Part shown: positions 17,400-36,607 of the stretch, one piece after another | Position numbering within the stretch: position 1 is the stretch's first letter | Layout of the letters: the number at the start of each line of letters is the position of its first letter | Assembly (NCBI GenBank): GCA_003971905.1 | Contig: RSEE01000009.1 | Location: 310,001-374,000, forward strand | Direction: 5' to 3' | From: Moniliella sp. 'wahieum' | Lineage: Eukaryota; Basidiomycota; Moniliellomycetes; Moniliellales; Moniliellaceae | Length of the DNA: 64,000 bases | Made by a program: the position numbers and the translations under genes | Notes under the pieces: model-generated | What the model saw: only the letters and a program-made list of their open reading frames with translations | Told to the model about the DNA's origin: nothing | The model's database searches: none

Positions 17400-20300
17400 T
17401 TACCACTGCGCACCAAACGCGCCCAAAAAGCTGCCCCAGCCTCACCGCCCACACCCCAACCGGCGGCGCCCGAGACGCTAGCAGACCCGTTAGCACCAAT
17501 GGCATCCTCGACGCTGGCTGCGTACTTCGCAGCCTCAAGGTCGCCCTTCAACCCGGCCTCAAGGTTCGCGCCCCAGTTGACAGCACCGGAAAGGCTTGCC
17601 GAGGCCTTGGAAGCAGCGGCAGCGGCAATGCTGACTGCCTGTTGCGCCGGTGGCAACGCCACCGTCGACGTCAGCGCCGACACTGGCAGCGGCAGAGAGC
17701 ACCAGCGGATGCCTTGGCAGCAATGGCAGCCTCGACGCTCGCCGCATACTTCTTGGCAGCCTCAAGGTCGCCCTTCAGGCCAGCCTTCAGTTCAGCGCCC
17801 CACTTGACTTCACCAGACAGTTCAGCGGAGGCCTTGGCAGCGGCGGCCGTGGCAATGCTGACAGCCTGTTGCGCAACAGTAGCAACGCCACCCTTGATGC
17901 CCGCACCAATGGCAGCCTCAATGCTCGCCGCGTACTTCTTGGCAGCCGACAGGTCGCCCTTCAACCCAGCTCCAGGTCCGCGCTCCACTTGACAGCACCG
18001 GAAAGATGAGCCGAGGCCTGGGCAGCAGCGACCGTAACAATGCTGACCGCCTGTTGCGCAGTCGCAGCAGCACCACCCTCGATGGCAGCGCCGACCAGCA
18101 GCCACCGAGACGCCAGCCGATGCCTTGGCAGCAATGGCAGCCTCAACACTCGCCGCGTACTTCTTGGCAGCAGACAGGTCGCCCTTCAGGCCAGCCTCCA
18201 GTTCAGCGGACCATTGGACAGCACCGGACAGATAGACCGAGGCTTGGCAGCGGCGGCAGCGGCAATGCTGACGGCCTGTTGCGCAGCGGTAGCAACGCCC
18301 CCTGGACCTGGGCGGCGGCCGAGACGCTAGCGGATACGTTGGCAGCGATGGCAGCCTCAATGCTCGCGGCATAGTTCTTGGCAGCCGAAAGGTCGCCCTT
18401 CAGGCCAGCCACCAGTTCAGCAGACCATTGAACGGCACCGGAAAGATGAGCCGAGGCCTGGGCAGCAGCGATCGTAACAATGCTGACGGCCTGTTGCGCA
18501 GTCGCCGCAACACCACCCTCGATGCCAGCACCAATGCTAGCGCCGACACCAGCAGCCACCGAGACGCCAGCCGATGCCTTGGCAGCAATGGCAGCCTCAA
18601 TGCTCGCCGCATACTTCTTGGCAGCTGACAGGTCGCCCTTCAGGCCAGCCTCCAGTTCAGCGGACCATTGGACAGCACCGGACAGATAGACCGAGGCTTT
18701 GGCAGCGGCGGCAGCGGTAATGCTGACGGCTTGTTGCGCAGCGGTAGCAACGGCACCCTCGACATGGGCGGCAGCCGAGACGCTAGCGGATACCTTGGTG
18801 GCAATGGCAGCCTCAATGCTCGCCGCATACTTCTTCGCGGCCGAAAGGTCGCCCTTAAACCCAGCCTCGAGATCGGCGCTCCACTGGATGGTACCGGAAA
18901 GGTGGGCCGAGCCTGGGCAGCAGCAGCAGCAGCAATGCTGACAGCCTGTTGCGCAGCCGTGGCAGCGCCAGCCTGGAAACTGGCAGCAGCCGAGACGGCA
19001 GCCGATCCCTTGGCAGCAATGGCAGCCTCAATGCTCGCCTCGTACTTCTTGGCAGCCGAAAGGTCGCCCTTCAACCCAGCCTCCAGGTCCGCGCCCCACT
19101 GGATGGCACCGGAAAGATAGGCCGAGGCCTTGGCAGCAGCACCGGCGGCAATGCTGACGGCCTGTTGCGCAGCCGTGGCAGCGCCACCCTCAATGCCAGC
19201 ACCGATGCCGGCACCAATGCCGGCGCCAACACTAGCCCCGCCCGAGAGACCAGCCGACGCCTTGGCGGCTTGCGAAGCAGCGACGCTAAGCGCTTGGTGG
19301 CCACCAGCCGAGATGCCACCCTTCCAGCTGGCAGCAACGCTCGCGGCGCCAGAGACAGCGGCGGAAGCCTGAGCCGCCTCGGAGACGGCAATGCTAGCGG
19401 CATGGTGTTGACCAATCGAGAACCCGGCGGAGGCCTTGGCAGCTTCCGAAACGGCAATGCTGGCAGCGTGGTGACCCGCAGCCGAGGCGCCGGCCTGCAC
19501 CCCGGCACCGATGCTAGCAGCCCTGTGAAGCGCCTCGGACGCACTGGCAGAGAAGGCAGCACCAAAGCTAGCCGCTTCTTGAGCCGCCTGCGACGCACCG
19601 GCAGCCAACGCACCCGAGGCGGCAGCGTGGAAACCAGCGGCAATGCTGGCCGCTTCCTGCTCCGCAGCAGAGACGGCAGCGGCGATTGAGGCCTTGTAAG
19701 CCCCGCCACGGCTGGCGCCGAACTGAGCAGCAGCCGAAATGGATGCCTGGGCCGCCGCTGCGGCGCTGGCAGCGTGCTGTTCAGCAATCGAGAGGCTAGC
19801 CAGGACCGCACCGTCGCAACCCTCGGAAGCACCGACAGAGAAGCCACCGTGGGCACCTTCAGAAAAGCCGGCCGACGCCTTGGCACCTCCAGCGGCCGAG
19901 ATAGCCGCCGACTTGCCAGCCGAGAAGCCCGCCGACTTACCAGCCGAGAAGCCCGCCGAGGCACCGGCCGACTTGCCAGCCGAAATGCCTACAGACTTGC
20001 TACCGCCCAAAGCCGACCGACTTGCTACCGCCAGCGCCAAACGACGCACCAACCGATTCCGCGGCCGATGCACCAGCGGATTCACCGAGAGAAACGCTGG
20101 CATGGCCACCTGGGGCCGCGTGAGAGGAAGCCGGCTTGACGTGCTCGATAGAGGACGACAGGTGGGGCGTGAGAAGAATGGTGCGGCTTGGACGGAGAGT
20201 GGGCCGAGTGCGATTTGTGGACCTTGTGCGACTCGGAGACGAAGATGACCCTTGTGCGACGGGTGAGAAACAGGCGACGAAGCAGGGTGGCGGTGGTGGG

Positions 20301-20898
20301 AATGAGAAGAGGTGTCAGGGAGGGAGGTAGACCAGCTACGGGAAAGGCCCCAAGTAGTGGTGGTGCCAGTGCTCGTGGCAGTGCTACTCGCAGCGCTCTT
20401 GGCCGTCGAGGCGCTAGCCGCCACACTCTTCGCGGCGCTCTTGGCCGCCGAAGCGCTTGCACCCTGAAGAACGGAGACGGAGAAACCAACGTTGCCGCCG
20501 GCGTTGCCACCGCCACCAAGGACAATTCCAAACTCGCCGAACGGGTTGGTCACGATGATCGACTCGGAGAACTTGGCAGCAACTTTCCAAGAATCGGAAG
20601 CGGACGCAGCAGCAGCAGCCGTCGCACCGTTCTTGCCGATAGCAAACACCCTCGCTGCGGCTGACGTCCCATTGCTCCGAGTCGGAAAGGTCGAATCCGC
20701 CACCGATCTGCAAACCAGGCAGGTCCAAGCTTTGGCCCACTTCAAGGTGATGGCAGCCGAGGCAGCAGCGGCAGCAGCCGCATGAAAGAAGGTCACGACG
20801 AACACCGTGGTGACGACGGAGACGGGAGGCGTTGGGGTCCGCAACCACGCCCGTGGCGGCGATGGCCAGGCGAGGGTAACGAAAGGAGTGAGGTGCAT
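17400..20898 (-). CDS. Secreted alanine-rich tandem-repeat protein of unknown function
   Basis: Not recognised as a known family. ATG at 20898 opens a signal peptide: with one base restored near 20868 it reads MHLTPFVTLALAIAATGVVA followed by DPNAS. Then come an Ala-rich stretch, a domain with SESIIVTNPFGEFGIVLGGG, an SAAKS-rich linker, a His/Ser-rich segment (about 20100-20330, HKVHKSHSAHSPSKPHHSS), a field of short SAGKSAGFSAGKSA-like repeats (about 19860-20000), a region of AASIAxxxAAxASA heptad-like units (about 19270-19850), and about eight long tandem repeats (17600-19260). The terminal frame suggests GAFGAQW and a stop at 17400-17402. Total length is roughly 1,160 residues, over a third Ala, with Ser and Gly next. 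Frame changes are frequent. Long amphipathic helices are likely; a cell-wall, adhesive or structural role is inference only. Confidence 0.75.
17600..19260 (-). repeat. Coding tandem repeats, about 8 units of 190-240 bp
   Basis: The anchor ATGCTGACNGCNTGTTGCGC (plus strand) recurs at about 17628, 17852, 18038, 18266, 18479, 18719, 18935 and 19150. On the coding strand each unit reads roughly AAQQAVSIAAAAAAKASA, then LSGAVQWSADLEAGLKGD, then LSAAKKYAASIEAAIAAK, then a variable ASAGVS linker. Spacing is typically 213-240 bp with one short interval of 186 bp. Confidence 0.9.
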
Positions 20899-22308
20899 GA
20901 GAAGAGAGTGTGTGGAAAAGAACGTGTGTAGGGGAGGTAAGGTAGGAGGTAGCCCTCTGTGCAGATACGCGGGAGGGAAGGGGGTGGAGAGATGGGGGTG
21001 GGGGGAAAGAAGAGGGAGAGGCGAAGCGACGAGAAAATGAGGGGAGGATGGGATGCTAGTGCAATATTATAGAGAGGTAAGATGATCTGGGGTCGATCGG
21101 CGGCTCACGTTGAACGATCGTTTGGCTTTGGCCCGAATGTCTGCGCGCCGGCACCCAGCGCTAGGCAATTGCAGGTAGGGCGCTGCGGCTGAGCGCAGAG
21201 CTTTAGACTCATTCAGCTCTGGCCGACTGGTGAGGCCACCGTGATTTGGCACAGTCGATCGACGGGGCGATGAAGGGAAGCGTCTGTTGTGGTGCACCCA
21301 GCGCCATATGCCTCTGCTGCGATGTGCACGCCCTGAGCCTCAGGCCTGAGGCCTCAGGCCCAGGCCTCGCGCCCCCCGGCCCTCCGGAACGCCGTGACCA
21401 GGGTTGCCTGTCCCCCAAGACCAACGGCTGGAGCTCAGCCTGAGTGCCGAGCCGATGAGTACTTAGAAACAGTAACGTGCCGCGGAGCGTAGTAAGCGCA
21501 GTAAGCACGACGCGTAGTAAGCCTGTCGGCGCACCGCAAACTAGCCACACCGGCCCAAGTGGTAATACGTACAGCGTGCTGTAATATAATGTGCTGCACT
21601 TTCAATGTGGAGCCAGCTTCTCTGGAAAGGAAAGCGAGGCGACTAGAGAAGCTAGCGACGCTGACGGAGGCAAGGGAGCACCGGGTGAGTGTGTGGTGAC
21701 AGGAGCATCGGACGGGGCAAGGGGTAGAGCGTGAGTGTGCGCCCCAGTCCCCAGTTGCACACAGTTGCACCTGGATCTGCAGCCGTCACGCGTGCGGCGG
21801 GGGACAACCAGTGGGTGGAGGTTAGGGGTGGCCGCTGGCCCGTGCCGATACCTCGGGGGATCGGTGACCGGTGGCCGGTGAAGCTGGTGAAGCACGGTGC
21901 ATGGCGGTGACGCGGTGATGCGGACATATGAGACACGATGCATGGGATCTGCGTTATGAGATGGGTGATACCGGTGGTCATCGGGAGCGCAGGGCAGTGC
22001 ACACTCTGTGCTCAATCTGGCACTCGCACGCAGCCTCAGCCTCAGCCGCTGTGGCTCGCACAGTGTACCAGTGCCAGTATGCTCAGGCAGCCAGAACAGC
22101 AGCACGCGGCCGCAGTCTTCCCATCTCCGAGTCTGGCCGGGCCGGTCGGTTGTTCCTGTAGTGTGGCTTGCACCCACTCTTCCCACTTTCGCGTGGCTTG
22201 GCAAGCGTAACCTTTCCGCGCTAGTTCCTTGCGTTTGGCGTGGAAATGTACCGATCTATACGTAATGTGGCCAATATGTTAGGCCTGTTGGCCCCGGGCC
22301 CGCATGTG
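20899..22308. other. Intergenic, start of repeat island
   Basis: Promoter side of the Ala-rich gene: purine-rich on the plus strand to about 21050. A CCTCAGGCCTGAGGCCTCAG palindromic field lies at about 21335-21366, and GTGACCGGTGGCCGGTGAAG at about 21861-21885. No gene is recognised. Confidence 0.5.
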
Positions 22309-22540
22309 TTGACTGTGATCTCTGGCTCCCAGTCGGTAGACCAGGTTCGCCTCGGTTCCATCGGCTTCCACGCTGACGTCCCTGCGTGTCACTGTCCTGT
22401 GCCCTGCACTCTTCCTGTGGACTCACTGCCCTGTGCCTAGTCCAGCCTCCTATATAGATGCCTCTGTACCCAGACCCAACTCTGGCTCCAATCCATCACC
22501 TTCTCCTCATCCTTCTGCCCGTCCGGCTCCCTAGGCCACA
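22309..22540 (+). repeat. Dispersed repeat R2, copy 1, with TATA motif
   Basis: About 230 bp beginning GTTGACTGTGATC and running through CCAGTCGGTAGACCAGGTTC, CCTCCTATATAGATGCC and ACCCAGACCCAACTCTGGCT. It matches 23451-23690 (direct) and the reverse complement of 45765-46008. The conserved CTATATAG box followed by a pyrimidine-rich stretch looks like a promoter core or an LTR-type element. No flanking coding domain of a retroelement was found. Confidence 0.85.
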
Positions 22541-22660
22541 GAGCTACAATCTGATCCCCCGGAAGGGGAGCGCTCTTCAAGCAAGCCCACCCCCAAGCCT
22601 ACAAGCCCAAGCTAAGCCGCCAAGCCCACAAGACACACCGTCCTCCCGCCCAACACACCA

Positions 22661-22740
22661 CCGCCACAATCGGCACCTTACCGCCACAATCGGCATACTA
22701 CCGCCACAATCGGCATACTACCGCCACAATCGGCACACTC
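22661..22740 (+). repeat. 20-bp minisatellite, 4 units
   Basis: Four head-to-tail units of CCGCCACAATCGGCATACTA (first and last diverge at the end: ACCTTA, ACACTC). The units start at 22661, 22681, 22701 and 22721. Confidence 0.95.
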
Positions 22741-22759
22741 GTCCCCCACAGATGGGGCA

Positions 22760-23324
22760 ATGATTTTTAGGGACAACACACGACGGAACAAACGTGTCGG
22801 GTATCGTCAACGAGACGAAATTCCTCCAACGACAAACGGCGCAGGCGAATCGCAGAAAGCGGGGGTGGCTGCTCATCAAGTGCCCCACCCACGGCTACAC
22901 GCCCCGGATTGCCAATTCATCCGGGGCACCTGGGGAAAGGATGGGGGGGGTGGTCACCCAACTTCTTCCACTCCTCTTTTTCAACAACAAAGAGAACCCA
23001 AACAGATCAAGACGGTTGACGCATAGCGCCCGTTCATTTCCCATGCCCAATGGACCCCACTGGCACCAGGCATGCGGAACCAAACAACTACCAAACGCAT
23101 CCAATTTGATGCCAAACGACTTGGACCCGCATTTACTCCAAGTTTCCAATTTTCTTTCACTACACTATAACTGGTGCTTTTTACTTTTGCCCACCAAATC
23201 GCTTCGGGGCGCAACCCCTACTACTTTTACTTCTAAGACTTCTACAAGCATCTGGCGGTCGCACAATACACCAACCACAAGCGCTCGGCTCGTTCAGGTG
23301 TCATCCTGGACAGCGGGGGTGTAG
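22760..23324 (+). other. Weak coding trace between R2 copies
   Basis: Two overlapping open frames, 22760-23026 and 22794-23324 (176 codons), plus a third-frame stretch near 23290-23400 that contains GVILDSGGVGQ. None matches a family I recognise. The ILDSG string recalls an aspartic-protease or actin-type motif but no supporting residues follow. It may be a remnant of an element bounded by the two R2 copies, or chance. Confidence 0.2.
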
Positions 23325-23450
23325 GCCAGTCGTGTGGCCATGCACAACTCAGGCCATTCGTCCCGGTTGCCACTCAAGTCCTCCCCTCTCTACATCCACT
23401 GGCAGGAGCTCATCCCACAACCGATGTCTCCGGGTTCCCTGGCCAGCGGG

Positions 23451-23690
23451 GGTGTTGACTGTGATCCTCTGGCTCCCAGTCGGTAGACCAGGTTCGCCTC
23501 GGTTCCATCGGCTTCCACGCTGACGTCCTGCGTGTCACTGTCCCTGTGCCCTGCACTCTCTCCTGTGTGACTCACTGTCCCTGTGCCTAGTCCAGCCTCC
23601 TATATAGATGCCTCTGTACCCAGACCCAACTCTGGCTCCAATCCATCACCTTTCCTCATCCTTCTGCCGTCCGGCTCCCTAGGCCAACAG
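23451..23690 (+). repeat. Dispersed repeat R2, copy 2
   Basis: Direct copy of 22309-22540 with small indels (for example CTGATCTCTGG against CTGTGATCCTCTGG, and one extra CTCTCC). The TATA motif at 23600-23607 is preserved. The two copies are about 1.14 kb apart. Confidence 0.9.
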
Positions 23691-27110: not shown

Positions 27111-27929
27111 GCCATGGGAAAAGTGGCAGCGGAGGACAAGGTTGCCCAAACTTGGAAGTCTAGAGCGGGAACCGGGAACATTGAAGCTGTGACGCAGAAC
27201 AAGTAAGGACTGAAAACTCCACGGATTGAATACGGGAAAAGCCGAACACTTAGCTGCTGGATAAAAAGCTGCAGCTAAAAGAGATGGCAACATGAAGAGA
27301 GAGCCGGAGAGGGGGAGAGCAGAGGAGGCAACAAAGAGAAGAAATCCGGTTTGTACCATATGGATTGAAAAAGGTGGAGCCGCCAATGGATTGAAGTATG
27401 GAAGGTGAAGACAACAATGGAACGTGGAGGAGACCCATGAACCATTGCTTGTAGTAGGCAGGGATCAAAAAAGGGAAACAACAACTCACAGTATCACTAC
27501 CGACCCCTTTTTGATAGTGTACACACGTCATCAATATCCATCGTGGCCTTGATGTCGCTGATGTCAGAAACCTTATTTATTCTGACATCCAGGATGTCAG
27601 CGCCATCTCGGCTCTCCCTTGCTATCCTCGTGTCAAGGACGCGAGTGAGGTCAAATCTGTTATCGGCGATCACAACGACAGTGCCATCAGTCTTCCAGCT
27701 TCGATGTTCAAGCAAAAGACAATGGTCCCTGGATCTGCTTATGCAACCTCGATGGTGGCCGGTCAGAGGGGTCTTTGTGCGAAGCGATGGCCTTGTGTTC
27801 CGCCGCTGTTCCGCCTCCTTGGATGTGTTTGCCGCGTATTCGCTGCTTCGCGGAAGTTGACCAGCGATGGGCCAGACATTCATCAATCACACCACTACTT
27901 TTCTTTGCATCTCGTCCAACTGAGCGATC
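27111..27929. other. Gene-free stretch in repeat island
   Basis: A minus-strand frame of 129 codons (27497-27886, with SDISDIKATMDIDD) shows a loose resemblance to another at 31384-31650, but neither resembles a known family. Word repeats of the type TGATGTCAG / CTGACATCCAGGATGTCAG occur at about 27558-27602. Confidence 0.4.
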
Positions 27930-28263
27930 TGTGGGCGACCGCTATGCGCCTCACTGGGAAGCCACCGGGCCCCGGCCCGGTCTGCTGAGGCTTCGCCCCA
28001 GCCTGTTGGGCTGGGTCACCGTTGCCACCGTAGCCGCCGTTCCACTGGTCCACCGGTCCACCCTTCCACGCTGGAACCCTTCCACGCTGGAGAGACAAAA
28101 TAATATCACCAACGAGGAGACCACCGGGCCTACGGCCCGGTCAGCTCTTCGCCCCAGCTCGGTGCTTGGCCGCCACCTTAGCCACCGTTCCCCCTAGAGA
28201 TACGCGCTGGCTGGGTGGACTGGAACGTGGCACGCGTCAGCTGATGTAAAAGTGTACAGGGGC
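27930..28263 (+). repeat. Dispersed repeat R5, copy 1, with GC hairpins
   Basis: Contains two internal versions of one module: CCGGGCCCCGGCCCGG (27965-27980) and CCGGGCCTACGGCCCGG (28124-28140), each followed by a CTTCGCCCCAGC segment and CCACCGT/CCACCTTAGCCACCGTT units. The tail (28198-28263, GGAACGTGGCACGCGTCAGC then TGATGTAAAA) matches 48220-48270. The copy at 47929-48270 carries CCGTGCCTACGGCACGG at the hairpin. Confidence 0.85.
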
Positions 28264-28814
28264 GTTTCTCATGTCCCATTTTTTCACCCGGCCTCACGTA
28301 GTACGAAGAGTACTAGAGTACTGGTGGAGCTAGTGACTAGCGGCTAGTGAAGCTTGAAGCTTGAAGAGCTAGTGAAGCGAAGCTTGAAGAGATTATCGAT
28401 TGGTATGAGATCTGAGAATCGCAGTAGGCGATCAGTCGATGGCGCGCAGGCAGCGGGGTTGTACTGGTGCTCTCATGCGGCCCCGTGCGGCGCCAGCACA
28501 GGGGCTGTGTAGTGTAAGGTGCATCCCAAAGCATCTAAATACGATGGGCGTGAGAAAAATGGTCTCGTCGGCCTGAGCAAACGAGCAACTCATGTAACGC
28601 CGCAGGCGCAGACCGCGTACCGGAAGGCGGTACCTGAGAGCACCGCGACGCCTTTAAAGCTCTGTCAATGATAGGGATGCAGTATAGAGAAAACTAGAAC
28701 TCCACTCCTCCTCTCAGTGGCATGGTTCGGTGTAATCGTAATCTAATGTCCTTGACCCAAGTTGCAGCACGGTGTTGAGCAACCGGGTGCCTCCTTTGTT
28801 TTGTCCAACGTCTC
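28264..28814. other. Gene-free stretch with word repeats
   Basis: GAAGCTTGAAGCTTGAAGAG words at 28348-28392 and ACTAGTGACTAGCGGCTAGT-like words near 28310-28345. No gene is recognised. Confidence 0.5.
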
Positions 28815-29045
28815 CAATCGCCGGCGCCCCAGTATAGGGTAAAGGCGTAGTGCAAAAGCGTGGAACCTTCCTGGTCATTCCTTCTAATACTCCTTCCTGG
28901 AAGGCACAGGAGTATTCTCTAGTCTCTGTATTTTCTTGACTCTTGTTACGAGGCGCTCCGGTGTCTCCCGACGCAGAGCCCCGCATGTCATAGGCATCTC
29001 TTACTAGCACGTCAGCCTCTACATAGGCTAGCAAGAGAGAGCTTA
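28815..29045. repeat. Compound dispersed repeat R6, left part
   Basis: 28815-28935 matches 29517-29650 in direct orientation (anchors GGTAAAGGCG/GGAAAAGGCG, CTCCTTCCTGGAAGGCA and AGTATTCTCTAG). 28945-29045 matches 29214-29325 in inverted orientation (anchors GCGGGGCTCTGCGTC and AGCTCTCTCTTGCTAG). Confidence 0.8.
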
Positions 29046-29213
29046 TTATCCATGCAGCTGGCATCCTTCGCAACCCGCTCAATATGATATGAGCGCATGG
29101 GTAGGATGCTTTGTTCCCATTGCGCCCACAGTCTTGGCAGAACCCTTTGTCTGCTGCGGCCCACCGGACCCCGCATCTGACAGAACAGACTGCGCTTTAT
29201 GCCTTAATATTGT

Positions 29214-29650
29214 AGCTCTCTCTTGCTAGGCTATGTAGAGACTGACCCCTTTGGAAGAGATTCCTACGAAATGCGGGGCTCTGCGTCAGGACATAGCGGA
29301 GCGCCCCGTAACATCTCTGTAGCTCATCCGCTCATGTGTAAAATGCAATACACCGTCAACTGCTTGCTCTCTGGTCTTTCACATCATTATTCAGCCCACC
29401 GCGGACACGGTTCCATGCGCTAGTATGTCCGTCGAAGCGGAGGGTGCACTACACAGTGCAAGTACTCGCGCTATCTGTGACAGTTGCAGCACGGTTCGAT
29501 GTGGCGTATACCAGGCCAAGCGCCAAGCGCCAAGTGGCGCCACTGTAGGGAAAAGGCGCAGCCTAAGCGCGGATGCTTCCTTATCAATCCTTCCAATATT
29601 CCTTCCTGGAGGGCAGGAGTATATTCTCTAGCCTCTGTAGCTCTCATGTG
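29214..29650. repeat. Compound dispersed repeat R6, right part
   Basis: 29214-29325 is the inverted partner of 28945-29045. 29517-29650 is the direct partner of 28815-28935. The mixed orientation suggests nested or rearranged insertions of one element. Confidence 0.8.
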
Positions 29651-29667
29651 CAAATGTTTAGTAGCAC

Positions 29668-29855
29668 TATGTCACAGTCGGGGCTAAGGTGAGGGAGACC
29701 AGGATCGGACTAGGCCAAGGGGTAGCAATCGTTCGTGGGGAAGAAGCAAGAACAGAGGACATGGTGCGAAGTGGAAGGAACAGGGAAGGAGCGAGACGCT
29801 CGAGACGAAGAAATTGGAAATGGGAGCGAGATCAGCCAAACTATGACACACTAGT
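29668..29855 (+). repeat. Dispersed repeat R3, copy 2
   Basis: Direct copy of 25912-26112, diverged in its middle but near identical over CGAAGAAATTGGAAATGGGA and the following CAGCCAAACTATGACA. Confidence 0.85.
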
Positions 29856-30812
29856 GGCAGTGATTAAAGGCGAGGCCAACTCTTATTCATTCCACCGCCT
29901 GAACGCTTTCGGACCCCGCCAGTCCCGATATGGCCCCCATCAGACCCGATGTGGATATTTTGATGACAACCAGTGGCCTGGCGAGGCAACCAGACTGCAT
30001 CCAGGACCAGCCGGACGACATCCGCGCACACCTCGGCCATTATACGTTTGTTCACCTCCAAGCCGACTTCCAAGCCTCGGCCAGCCGCCTGTTGGAGAGC
30101 ATGACGTGCTCGACACCCCATGTGGAGGGCCATGATCCGACTCCAAGATCAGGTCGCAGACGTCCGCGAAGCCGTAAGTGGGGTAAACGAAATGCAACAT
30201 GAACTCCATGAAGCGCAAAACGGAAAGTTCTTCATGGGATCATGACGCGGACGGCCACATGTCGCAGGCCACTGCGAGCCAGGATGAAGGCGCAGAAAAG
30301 CGGACTCAAGATGCTGTTGGCCAAGTCCGCCCTATGTCTGTATGCCTCCATTTTTCATCTTCAGATGATTAAGGCTGACTACAGCATCTTTTTCCGTTTA
30401 AAGGCATTTTGGTTTTGCAGCGCAAGTACATTAAACATAGTCATGCGTTCCATGAAGGCTCCTTGGGAAGCGTCTCATCTAGGTGCCTTTGTGCGGTATG
30501 TACTATCTATCTTGAATCGCTCGAGACCACTCTGACAAAAGGAAGAAAGGAAAAGGTTGGGTTGAGCAGGAATGGGCCAAAAGTCACGTTGCCAGACCAA
30601 GGCCTCCTGGCACCGTTATCGATGCTGCAACTGATGATAAAGGGTGCCTAGGCAAAGAAGTACGGGCAAGAATAACGCTAGCCATAGCGGTCATCCGCTA
30701 CGAGATCGTAACTAATGTGCGTATCTTCATTTGGTTCCTTTCCTCTTCACGGTACGTTCTGAACGCTTCTACCCGAACCCACTTGCAGGTGGAGACGCAC
30801 CACTGGGTAAGT
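29856..30812 (+). other. Possible degenerate or spliced hypothetical gene
   Basis: A low-confidence coding trace. An open frame from 29930 (MAPIRPDVDILMTTSGLARQ, with HYTFVHLQADFQASASRLLE) continues after a frame change as AMIRLQDQVADVREAVSGVN with EMQHELHEAQNGKFFMGS, a coiled-coil-like stretch. A later segment reads WVEQEWAKSHVARPRPPG, EVRARITLAIAVIRYEIVTN up to a GTGCGTATC donor at about 30717. A CTTGCAG acceptor at 30781-30787 is followed by VETHHW and a GTAAGT donor at about 30807. I recognise no family. It could be a decayed gene in the repeat island. Confidence 0.3.
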
Positions 30813-32730
30813 AAGGCCCGCGGGCCCACGTTGGGTGTCGTCAGTGTCGCCTCATTTCACAAGAAGGTTGTCAAACACAACCTGGGAGACTATGACCGCA
30901 ACCTCAACGGCGTGGAGGGCAGGATCCTTCCGATGCGCATTCCCATCCTCCTTCATCTCTGTCTCGATTTGCTGAATATACAACCAGGTGGAGAAGCTGT
31001 CTAACGGACTGTAAAACCAGTGGGGCATTTTACTGGATGCCATCCCTGAGACTCCGGTGCAACTGTACCCGCTGATCCTCGTCGCAGCGCCTGTGATACT
31101 AACCCTTCGAACACATGTGGTGACTCGGCACGATATGCAATACCAATCTATCCAAATACCAGATCTCCTTTTTTGTGGTTTATTATAGGATTAGCCAACA
31201 TTATTATTGGATAGTCCCCCAAAGAAACGTGTATGCAACAGGAGCAGTCATAGTCCTCGATGTTGACAGTGTCATCGGCGGATGCAATGATGCCATGGAA
31301 AGCTGCGGAGACATTGATGTCGGGGTACCCGGGGACGTCAATGCCATCGTTGGAGATTTATTACCCCTATGGTATCACCCACGTCAATGACACCCCCGAC
31401 GTCTAAGGCACTCACGACGTCTAAGGCATCTTTGGTAGTGCTGTCCATCGCCGATATATTTGACGTTAATCCTATCATTCATAGGGCGTAACCCGTTGGT
31501 GTTTTCCCCTTCCCTGATGTCTTTGATACCCTGAGCGAGTCTCGTATCCATGGTGCCAATGACATCCATTTCGTATCTGACATCATGGATATCACTACCG
31601 TCCCCGGCATCGAAAACAGCTGTGTTATTTACTTGATATCTATGAAACACTCATTGTCGTCCCCAATCTATGACCGTCATGATCGTCATGACGGTCATGG
31701 ATGTCAGAAAGGGGTCGGTAGTGCATTATAGAGGGTACTAGTAAAAACAGAGAAGGATGGACATGCAAAAACTTGGGAGTACAGTCACCACACAAGGGAG
31801 ACTGTGTTCCCGAGAGGGGGAAACCAGGAAACAATACAAGCGGACTCACAGCGCTCCGTTCCTAATGACTCCAGGACGACACATGCCTGTATTAAGAATA
31901 GCAGAAAGAATAGCGTACTATATCCGCACCTTTGATTGGAGAGTGTAAGCGACGACGCGAAAGCCATAGATTCGTAAGGGTGACAAGAATAAAGGGGATG
32001 TCCAGCTACGATTAGGGTGTTGATCAGGTTTGATCGGAAGGAACAAATTGGTTGATAACATAAGAGGACCGGCATACACCAGCAAAAACCCCAACGGTGT
32101 AATACCACCGGTGGAATGCATGCCGTATCAGAGCACGGATCACCTCGATCACCAGGGGGCTCACTGCGCTCATCACTGTTGCAGTGCCAACACTAGCGCG
32201 ACTCTCATATAGGCAAACACGGAGCAAGGGTGCCGCGCAAGGTCTAGTGGGCTCAAGCTTCAAGCTTCAAGCTTCAGATGAAGCTTCAGACTTCTGGTCT
32301 AAGGGATCGGAAGAGACACCACTGCATACATTGCCCTTGTGTGGCATGTGACCCGCAGGTTGCGCAGGAAGAAGCGCAAGAGTCAGGTCGACCTCGCGGC
32401 GCACACCTCGGCCCAACGTGGCCAGAGAAGAATAAAAAAGAGTACAGAGCAGATAGATGGGAATATGCATGGTGCACCAAAACGAGATGACGAGGGAATC
32501 GCGGGGGAATCACAGGGTAGCCAGGCTACGCAGGAGAAGGGAAGCGAGTATCCCAACTACCCAACCACTCAAAGAAAAGGGCCAGTTCCTATACTGGCTG
32601 GTTGGTTCCTACCTCCCTCACCCCTGAGATCCGAGAGAGGGAAACGAAACCTGAGCGGAGCGAAACGAGGATGGACGCTCGATGCGCTTCACACACGCAT
32701 CCTCAGTTTGCTTAGTTGCTCAACCCCTCC
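30813..32730. other. Gene-free stretch, end of first repeat island
   Basis: No conserved product. GACGTCTAAGGCA-type words at 31396-31430, the palindrome TGACCGTCATGATCGTCATG then ACGGTCA at 31671-31697, AAGCTTCAAGCTTCAAGCTT at 32255-32274. The 3' flank of the SRPK gene lies at the right end. Confidence 0.5.

Positions 32731-36607
<3,877 letters not shown>

What the first reader, a model, noticed from the sequence alone, without database searches (positions are those of the whole stretch)
17400..20898. Secreted alanine-rich protein with long tandem repeats, family unknown
A signal peptide followed by roughly 1,100 residues dominated by Ala, Ser and Gly, in three repeat tiers: short SAGKSAGFS units, AASIA-type units, and about eight 72-residue repeats with a conserved Trp-containing core (SGAVQWSADLEAGLKGD) and a helical AAKKYAASIEAAIAAK arm. 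The regular helical, secreted design suggests a fibre, coat or surface-active protein. I know no described fungal family with this architecture.
Basis: partly seen in the sequence, partly recalled or inferred. Interest (0 to 1): 0.7.

Follow-up and report, generated by a model that had tools for sequence, protein, structure and literature searches.

The report
Silk-like two-faced secreted fungal protein
A probable fungus carries a gene for a long secreted repeat protein whose water-loving and water-avoiding building blocks alternate almost perfectly, the pattern of a silk-like flat sheet, so it may assemble into a coat or fibre outside the cell; no relative was found in the collections that could be searched.

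Summary
On the minus strand (17400-20898) lies a gene, broken in frame many times, for a secreted Ala/Ser/Gly-rich protein of about 1,100 residues with three repeat tiers. The assembly holds one other copy, syntenic on contig C38 (96.3% identical), whose signal peptide reads through unbroken. Both copies carry eight W-core repeats. Most frame breaks look like assembly errors (27 of 30 gaps between copies are 1-2 bases; in-frame differences fall on codon positions 28/20/62; dN/dS about 0.18), but one break, in unit 6, is shared by both copies and could be real. The helical reading is not supported: in 792 residues of in-frame repeat, 146 of 156 bulky hydrophobics sit on alternate positions and 217 of 263 polar residues on the others; hydrophobicity has a period of exactly two (0 of 500 shuffles in each of four pieces), and every measured unit spacing is even. 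That is a beta-strand design. AlphaFold2 gave only low-confidence helices, so the fold is open. No Pfam, NCBIfam or PDB entry matches above cut-off. Best reading: a self-assembling silk- or amyloid-like structural protein that works like the smut repellent Rep1, membership untested. No eukaryotic sequence collection could be searched, so novelty is provisional.

The parts
17400..20898 (-). whole gene, frame broken many times, mostly by what look like assembly errors; about 1,100 residues
   Evidence: other copy C38:301563 to about 305120 +
20840..20898 (-). signal peptide region (broken here; unbroken in the C38 copy)
   Evidence: judged by eye, no predictor run
20789..20824 (-). stretch with two RR dibasic (Kex2-like) sites, RLRRHHGVRRDL, if frame 0 is right here
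   Evidence: frame 0 and C38 frame 0; the frame of 20725-20823 is uncertain (differences 5/5/4 in the other reading)
20300..20788 (-). N-terminal non-repeat region, ends Ser/Thr/Ala-rich; no period-2 pattern
   Evidence: N144: 0.358 of shuffles reach the peak; no Pfam match at E up to 1; best PDB E 0.052, a designed protein
20100..20300 (-). His/Ser/Lys-rich linker; a 46-base difference between the copies
19897..20007 (-). tier 1: SAGK/SAGF/SAAI tetrads; a 23-base difference between the copies
19189..19896 (-). tier 2: AASIA-type units, self-similar at lags such as 18, 22 and 40 residues
17468..19188 (-). tier 3: eight units (QQ module, W-core, KK module, Gly-rich spacer); a frame break shared by both copies at about 17970 in unit 6
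17400..17467 (-). Gly/Ala/Trp-rich C-terminal tail; exact end uncertain because the frame is not settled
   Evidence: by eye

Best explanation
A secreted structural protein built as one very long amphipathic beta-polymer. It enters the secretory pathway by its signal peptide, is perhaps trimmed at N-terminal dibasic sites, and assembles outside the cell. Every second residue (Ala, Val, Ile, Leu, Trp, Tyr) makes an apolar face; the residues between (Ser, Ala, Gly, Lys, Glu, Gln, Asp) make a polar face. Extended strands would stack into silk- or amyloid-like sheets that hide the apolar face or turn it to air or a hydrophobic surface, giving a coat, film or fibre. Conserved QQ and KK pairs and Gly-rich spacers would be turns. 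Shown: signal-peptide-like start, coding constraint, strict alternation, even unit spacings, eight units in both copies. Inferred: beta structure, turns, assembly, the coat or fibre role.
For: Alternation: 146 of 156 bulky hydrophobics on one face and 217 of 263 polar residues on the other, over 792 residues of six in-frame pieces. Spectral peak at 180 degrees with 0 of 500 shuffles reaching it in each of T366, R205, R50 and R91; power at 100 degrees stays below the 95th percentile of the shuffles' maxima. The four repeat-region pieces of the other copy show the same (44:2, 32:4, 23:3, 36:1). Five neighbouring gene pieces as controls: largest imbalance 0.26 in 200-residue windows. The unit spacings that can be measured inside single in-frame pieces are 62, 72, 76 or 80 residues, all even, so the phase is kept (gaps of 0, 4, 8). 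Coding constraint: 28/20/62 differences at codon positions 1/2/3, dN/dS about 0.18 over 1,124 codons.
Against: AlphaFold2 drew no strand: helices at pLDDT 62.6 and 43.5. Ala-rich sequence often gives helix by default, but that is an argument, not a result. The apolar face is mostly Ala, only weakly hydrophobic. The five pieces N-terminal to the T366 piece show no significant alternation. One frame break (unit 6) is shared by both copies, so the chain might really end there; behind it the differences are only 4/0/4 on codon positions 1/2/3, too few to show constraint. No expression, localisation or homologue data.
Confidence: 0.5

Rival explanations
1. Kex2-processed repeat precursor (KEP): the protein is cut at the KK pair in each large unit and the released amphipathic peptides act outside the cell, as with Rep1.
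For: Signal-peptide-like start and near-identical repeats; KK in 8 of 8 units of the C38 copy and 6 of 8 in the window copy. A KEP survey names KR, RR or KK as recognition sites (PMC7329392, passages). Rep1 is an amphipathic, Kex2-cut repeat protein whose peptides form surface-active amyloid-like fibrils (PMC4617103, passages).
Against: No KR or RR in the 14 pieces examined. KK is, from general knowledge, a poor Kex2 site. The window copy has KN in unit 4 and a single K in unit 8 (either could be an assembly error). The tier 1 and 2 piece carries no dibasic site before the first large unit.
Confidence: 0.2
2. Beta-solenoid: modules of about 22 residues each make one turn of a rigid beta-helix with the apolar positions inside, used as a stalk, adhesin or ice-active rod.
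For: Period-2 pattern; a recurring module in tiers 2 and 3 (whole-sequence score -50.2 against a maximum of -51.3 in 500 parity-keeping shuffles, but the best single domain, 8.9, is below the shuffles' maximum of 11.0).
Against: Alternation runs through almost unbroken where solenoid corners would be expected to disturb it; no match above cut-off in Pfam or NCBIfam and none at E below 0.3 in the PDB profile search; AlphaFold2 did not build one.
Confidence: 0.15
3. Ala-rich helical or coiled-coil fibre protein.
For: Ala 30.7% over 14 pieces and 35.8% in the units; both AlphaFold2 runs give helices.
Against: No helix periodicity above shuffles; pLDDT 62.6 and 43.5; strict alternation spreads hydrophobic residues evenly around a helix.
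Confidence: 0.12
4. Degenerate OAA-type lectin repeats that keep a beta-barrel.
For: NCBIfam NF050073 at E 0.0011, 18.9 bits against a cut-off of 150, for 1 of 5 proteins; PDB 4fbr at E 0.18; ungapped fit of the W-core; best domain of R205 reached by 0 of the 805 scored of 1,000 parity-keeping shuffles, of C3755 by 2 of 832, and by 0 of 815 in unit-wise shuffles.
Against: hhalign probability 0.07%, 36 of 200 column permutations score as high; 0 of 10 single units match NCBIfam at E up to 10; the WGG..APW stretch is absent; T366 does not exceed shuffles (58 of 617, 52 of 619), C4553 weakly (26 of 909, 6 of 924); the unit-wise control for R205 (35 of 1,000) left its last 61 residues unshuffled and is no fair test.
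Confidence: 0.03

Closest known systems
Rep1 repellent of Ustilago maydis
   Same: Secreted, amphipathic tandem repeats; assembly proposed here, and reported there as surface-active amyloid-like fibrils (PMC4617103, passages)
   Different: Rep1: 652 residues, repeats of 34-55 residues cut at Kex2 sites; here about 1,100 residues, units of 62-80, no KR/RR in the pieces examined. Sequence relationship not tested: no Rep1 sequence was on hand
Silk fibroins (Bombyx GAGAGS type; recalled)
   Same: Ala/Ser/Gly-rich, two-residue alternation over long stretches, tetrad tier SAGK/SAGF
   Different: Probably fungal; charged residues and V, I, L, W, Y in fixed places; a more complex unit. Comparison from memory only
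Rsp3, repetitive secreted protein of U. maydis
   Same: Secreted, long array of several kinds of repeat, length variation between alleles (PMC5923269, passages)
   Different: Rsp3 has a Cys-rich and a Gln/Pro-rich region; here a single Cys in 1,107 residues. No sequence comparison made
OAA-family lectins (MBHA, BOA, OAA, SfL-1)
   Same: Tandem units of similar size; W-core reads like their L-x-G...G-F-K-G-x-L stretch
   Different: Profile comparison not above controls; WGG..APW stretch absent

Membership tests
KEP (Kex2-processed repeat proteins) | ER signal peptide | tested here: met
   Unbroken N-terminus of the C38 copy, judged by eye; no predictor available
KEP (Kex2-processed repeat proteins) | repeats separated by Kex2 sites (KR, RR or KK) | tested here: inconclusive
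   Only KK: 8 of 8 units in C38, 6 of 8 in the window; no KR/RR in 14 pieces
KEP (Kex2-processed repeat proteins) | released peptides detected | not testable with these tools
   needs mass spectrometry
Silk-like / amyloid-like beta-sheet structural proteins | long two-residue alternation of small or apolar and polar residues (criterion recalled) | tested here: met
Silk-like / amyloid-like beta-sheet structural proteins | beta-sheet fibre or film shown physically | not testable with these tools
   AlphaFold2 uninformative, helices at low confidence
Rep1 repellents | sequence relationship to Rep1 | not tested
   no Rep1 sequence on hand; primary paper not held
OAA-family lectins | profile similarity above curated cut-off | tested here: not met
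   18.9 of 150 bits; hhalign 0.07%
OAA-family lectins | W-G-G-x-x-A-P-W stretch, seen in the lectins | tested here: not met
   absent from the ten units of A2
Ala-rich helical/coiled-coil fibre proteins | 3.5-3.6-residue hydrophobic periodicity | tested here: not met
Hydrophobins | eight conserved cysteines | tested here: not met
   one Cys in 1,107 residues of in-frame pieces; criterion from an abstract start in a search listing (PMC2253510)

The most novel reading that the evidence does not exclude
A fungal silk: a single-locus secreted protein family, unrelated to insect or spider silks, hydrophobins or repellents, that reached by itself the strictly alternating two-faced beta design and uses it for an extracellular coat or fibre.
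Probability: 0.25. Interest if true: 0.8.

Novelty: new variant of a known kind. Interest (0 to 1): 0.5.

Why it matters
If the beta reading is right, a fungus makes a silk-like, genetically encoded amphipathic polymer of about 1,100 residues with a readable design rule: keep the two-residue phase through every repeat and spacer. That would add an independent origin to the natural silk- or amyloid-type materials and give fungal surfaces a coat type besides hydrophobins and repellents. It would also explain why AlphaFold2 finds no confident fold: there may be no single-chain fold to find.

Tried and rejected
Helical repeat model: rejected as the main reading because of the period-2 spectrum, although AlphaFold2 drew helices. 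Fold searches with the two models were not run: confidence too low to mean anything.

Decaying pseudogene: thought unlikely, not excluded. Of 30 gaps between the copies inside the gene, 27 are of one or two bases, 12 lacking in the window copy and 18 in the other, all 30 counted; neighbouring conserved genes are broken in frame too (by eye; Pfam names); dN/dS is about 0.18. In that count 14 codons with more than one difference were left out of the ratio, and one piece (20725-20823; 5/5/4 differences) did not show coding behaviour. Against: the break at about 17970 in unit 6 is the same in both copies, with no gap between them there, so it is either a shared systematic error or a real early end.

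OAA lectin homology: pursued and not supported. Shared module of tiers 2 and 3: suggestive only. Pfam hits below cut-off taken as chance: DUF4085 (E 0.00031, 20.9 of 24.1 bits) and DNAJC11_beta-barrel (E 0.0096, 15.9 of 27) for the 205-residue piece; among ten single units they match 1 and 3, at best E 0.18 and 0.042. NCBIfam's serine-rich family matched two pieces at 19.1 and 12.9 of 650 bits.

Relatives: genome-contig scan, 597 pattern stretches, none confirmed; viral contigs, 171, none confirmed. Neither collection is meant to hold fungal genomes, so this says little. Species not identified: one literature search on assembly size and one on dikaryotic smut genomes gave nothing usable; the rRNA and hydrophobin family searches of the genome did not complete. 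Part (spectrum of whole units) failed on an empty row; one search replaced it.

Full report
What is there. The finding lies on the minus strand. The window is C9:310001-374000 of an unnamed 69.5-Mb assembly in 223 contigs. Translating the three minus frames and locating open pieces gives 16 in-frame pieces between 20898 and 17384 that hand over from frame to frame. They read: a hydrophobic start, a non-repeat region, a Ser/Thr-rich and His-rich linker, SAGK/SAGF tetrads (tier 1), AASIA-type units (tier 2), eight large W-core units (tier 3), and a short Gly/Ala/Trp tail. Composition over 14 of the pieces (1,107 residues, short overlaps counted twice) is Ala 30.7%, Ser 14.5%, Gly 11.8%, with one Cys.

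Is it a real gene? A search of the assembly with three pieces found one other locus, on C38 (the tool scores only its best candidates, and the further hits of the N-terminal piece have E 0.099 or worse). C38 is syntenic: 94.6% identity over 13.2 kb around the gene, 96.3% over 3,780 aligned bases. It is therefore probably the other haplotype or a homeologue. Inside the gene there are 30 gaps between the copies; 27 are of one or two bases, and of the 30, 12 are lacking in the window copy and 18 in the other, the mark of sequencing errors. In the in-frame pieces, differences fall 28/20/62 on codon positions 1/2/3, and dN/dS is about 0.18 over 1,124 codons, with 14 multi-difference codons left out of the ratio. 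One short piece (20725-20823) did not behave as coding, so the frame there is uncertain. One result goes the other way: at about 17970, in unit 6, both copies leave the frame at the same place with no gap between them. That is a shared systematic error or a real early end. Behind it only 8 differences remain (4/0/4), too few to decide; before it, in five repeat pieces, they are 14/11/36.

Secretion. The window copy is broken inside the signal peptide, but the C38 copy gives 39 unbroken residues: a typical signal peptide followed by a stretch with two RR pairs. No predictor was available; this is a reading by eye.

Repeat number. A pattern finds six W-cores in each copy, and two more per copy start with V, making eight in both. 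The gaps longer than 3 bases are 46 bases in the His-rich linker and 23 in the SAGK tier, none in the large units. Spacings measured inside single in-frame pieces are 62, 72, 76 and 80 residues.

The key result. Hydrophobicity has a period of exactly two residues. In pieces T366, R205, R50 and R91 the spectrum peaks at 180 degrees and 0 of 500 shuffles reach it; power at the helix angle is below the 95th percentile of the shuffles' maxima. The five other pieces of that call (N144, S51, N33, N23, H33), all N-terminal to T366, show no significant peak (0.116 to 0.358 of shuffles reach it). Over six repeat pieces (792 residues) 146 of 156 bulky hydrophobics are on one face and 217 of 263 polar residues on the other. 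The four C38 repeat pieces agree (44:2, 32:4, 23:3, 36:1); its two N-terminal pieces give 11:2 (signal peptide) and 8:10. All measured unit spacings are even, so the phase survives. In A2 the polar exceptions on the apolar face are mainly the second Q of QQ, the first K of KK, and some T; I read QQ and KK as turns (inference).

Structure. AlphaFold2 gave helices at pLDDT 62.6 and pTM 0.31 for 205 residues alone, and pLDDT 43.5 and pTM 0.33 for 152 residues with six rows. These do not decide the fold. Alternation would spread hydrophobic residues evenly around a helix; it is the textbook pattern of an amphipathic beta-strand (general knowledge). I therefore prefer beta, at moderate confidence, and report the models as evidence against.

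Families. Pfam: nothing above cut-off for eight pieces (nearest DUF4085, 20.9 of 24.1 bits) or in ten units (best E 0.042). NCBIfam: LectinOAAFamily at 18.9 of 150 bits for one of five proteins, and a serine-rich family far below its cut-off for two; none for ten units. PDB: best E 0.094, 0.32, 0.052, none at E up to 1. The OAA lead was tested: sequence-profile scores beat some shuffle controls, not all, and the profile-profile comparison is within its null, 36 of 200. I drop it as homology. It may reflect a shared hairpin pattern.

How it most likely works. Secreted, possibly trimmed after RR, the chain extends and stacks with others into two-faced sheets. One face (Ala, Val, Ile, Leu, Trp, Tyr) packs against another sheet, air or a hydrophobic surface; the other (Ser, Lys, Glu, Gln, Gly) meets water or wall polysaccharide. 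[quoted passage not shown] the primary paper PMC2666566 is not held). Membership in that family was not tested. The chief rival is a precursor cut at KK, which a KEP survey names among the sites (PMC7329392, passages).

Limits. No eukaryotic sequence collection was searchable; the scans of prokaryote genomes and viral contigs confirmed no relative. Literature searches for secreted Ala-rich repeat or silk-like fungal proteins listed nothing that I recognised as this protein; only listings were seen, plus passages of PMC5923269, PMC7329392, PMC4617103, PMC9769878 and PMC6339444.

Noticed in passing
window 27494-31744 and 22306-23690: Stretches of about 4.2 and 1.4 kb with almost no counterpart in the 20 kb fetched from C38, i.e. 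apparent haplotype-specific insertions near the gene; a 209-column match at 29670-29854 to C38 is 73%. No family searches were made on them.
   Followed up: partly
window 22654-22739: A 20-base unit repeated 4.3 times (CACACTACCGCCACAATCGG) inside the 1.4-kb stretch that C38 lacks.
   Followed up: no
window 32909-33058: 25 copies of a 6-base unit, reading as an Ala-Pro/Ala-Ser-rich stretch on the minus strand, near the kinase gene pieces.
   Followed up: no
G000 C9 versus C38: The 69.5-Mb assembly holds two copies of this region at about 95% identity, so it may be an uncollapsed dikaryon, diploid or hybrid; only this region was compared.
   Followed up: partly
window 20100-20300: His-rich linker whose length differs between the copies; might bind metal or be a cross-linking site (inference).
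   Followed up: no
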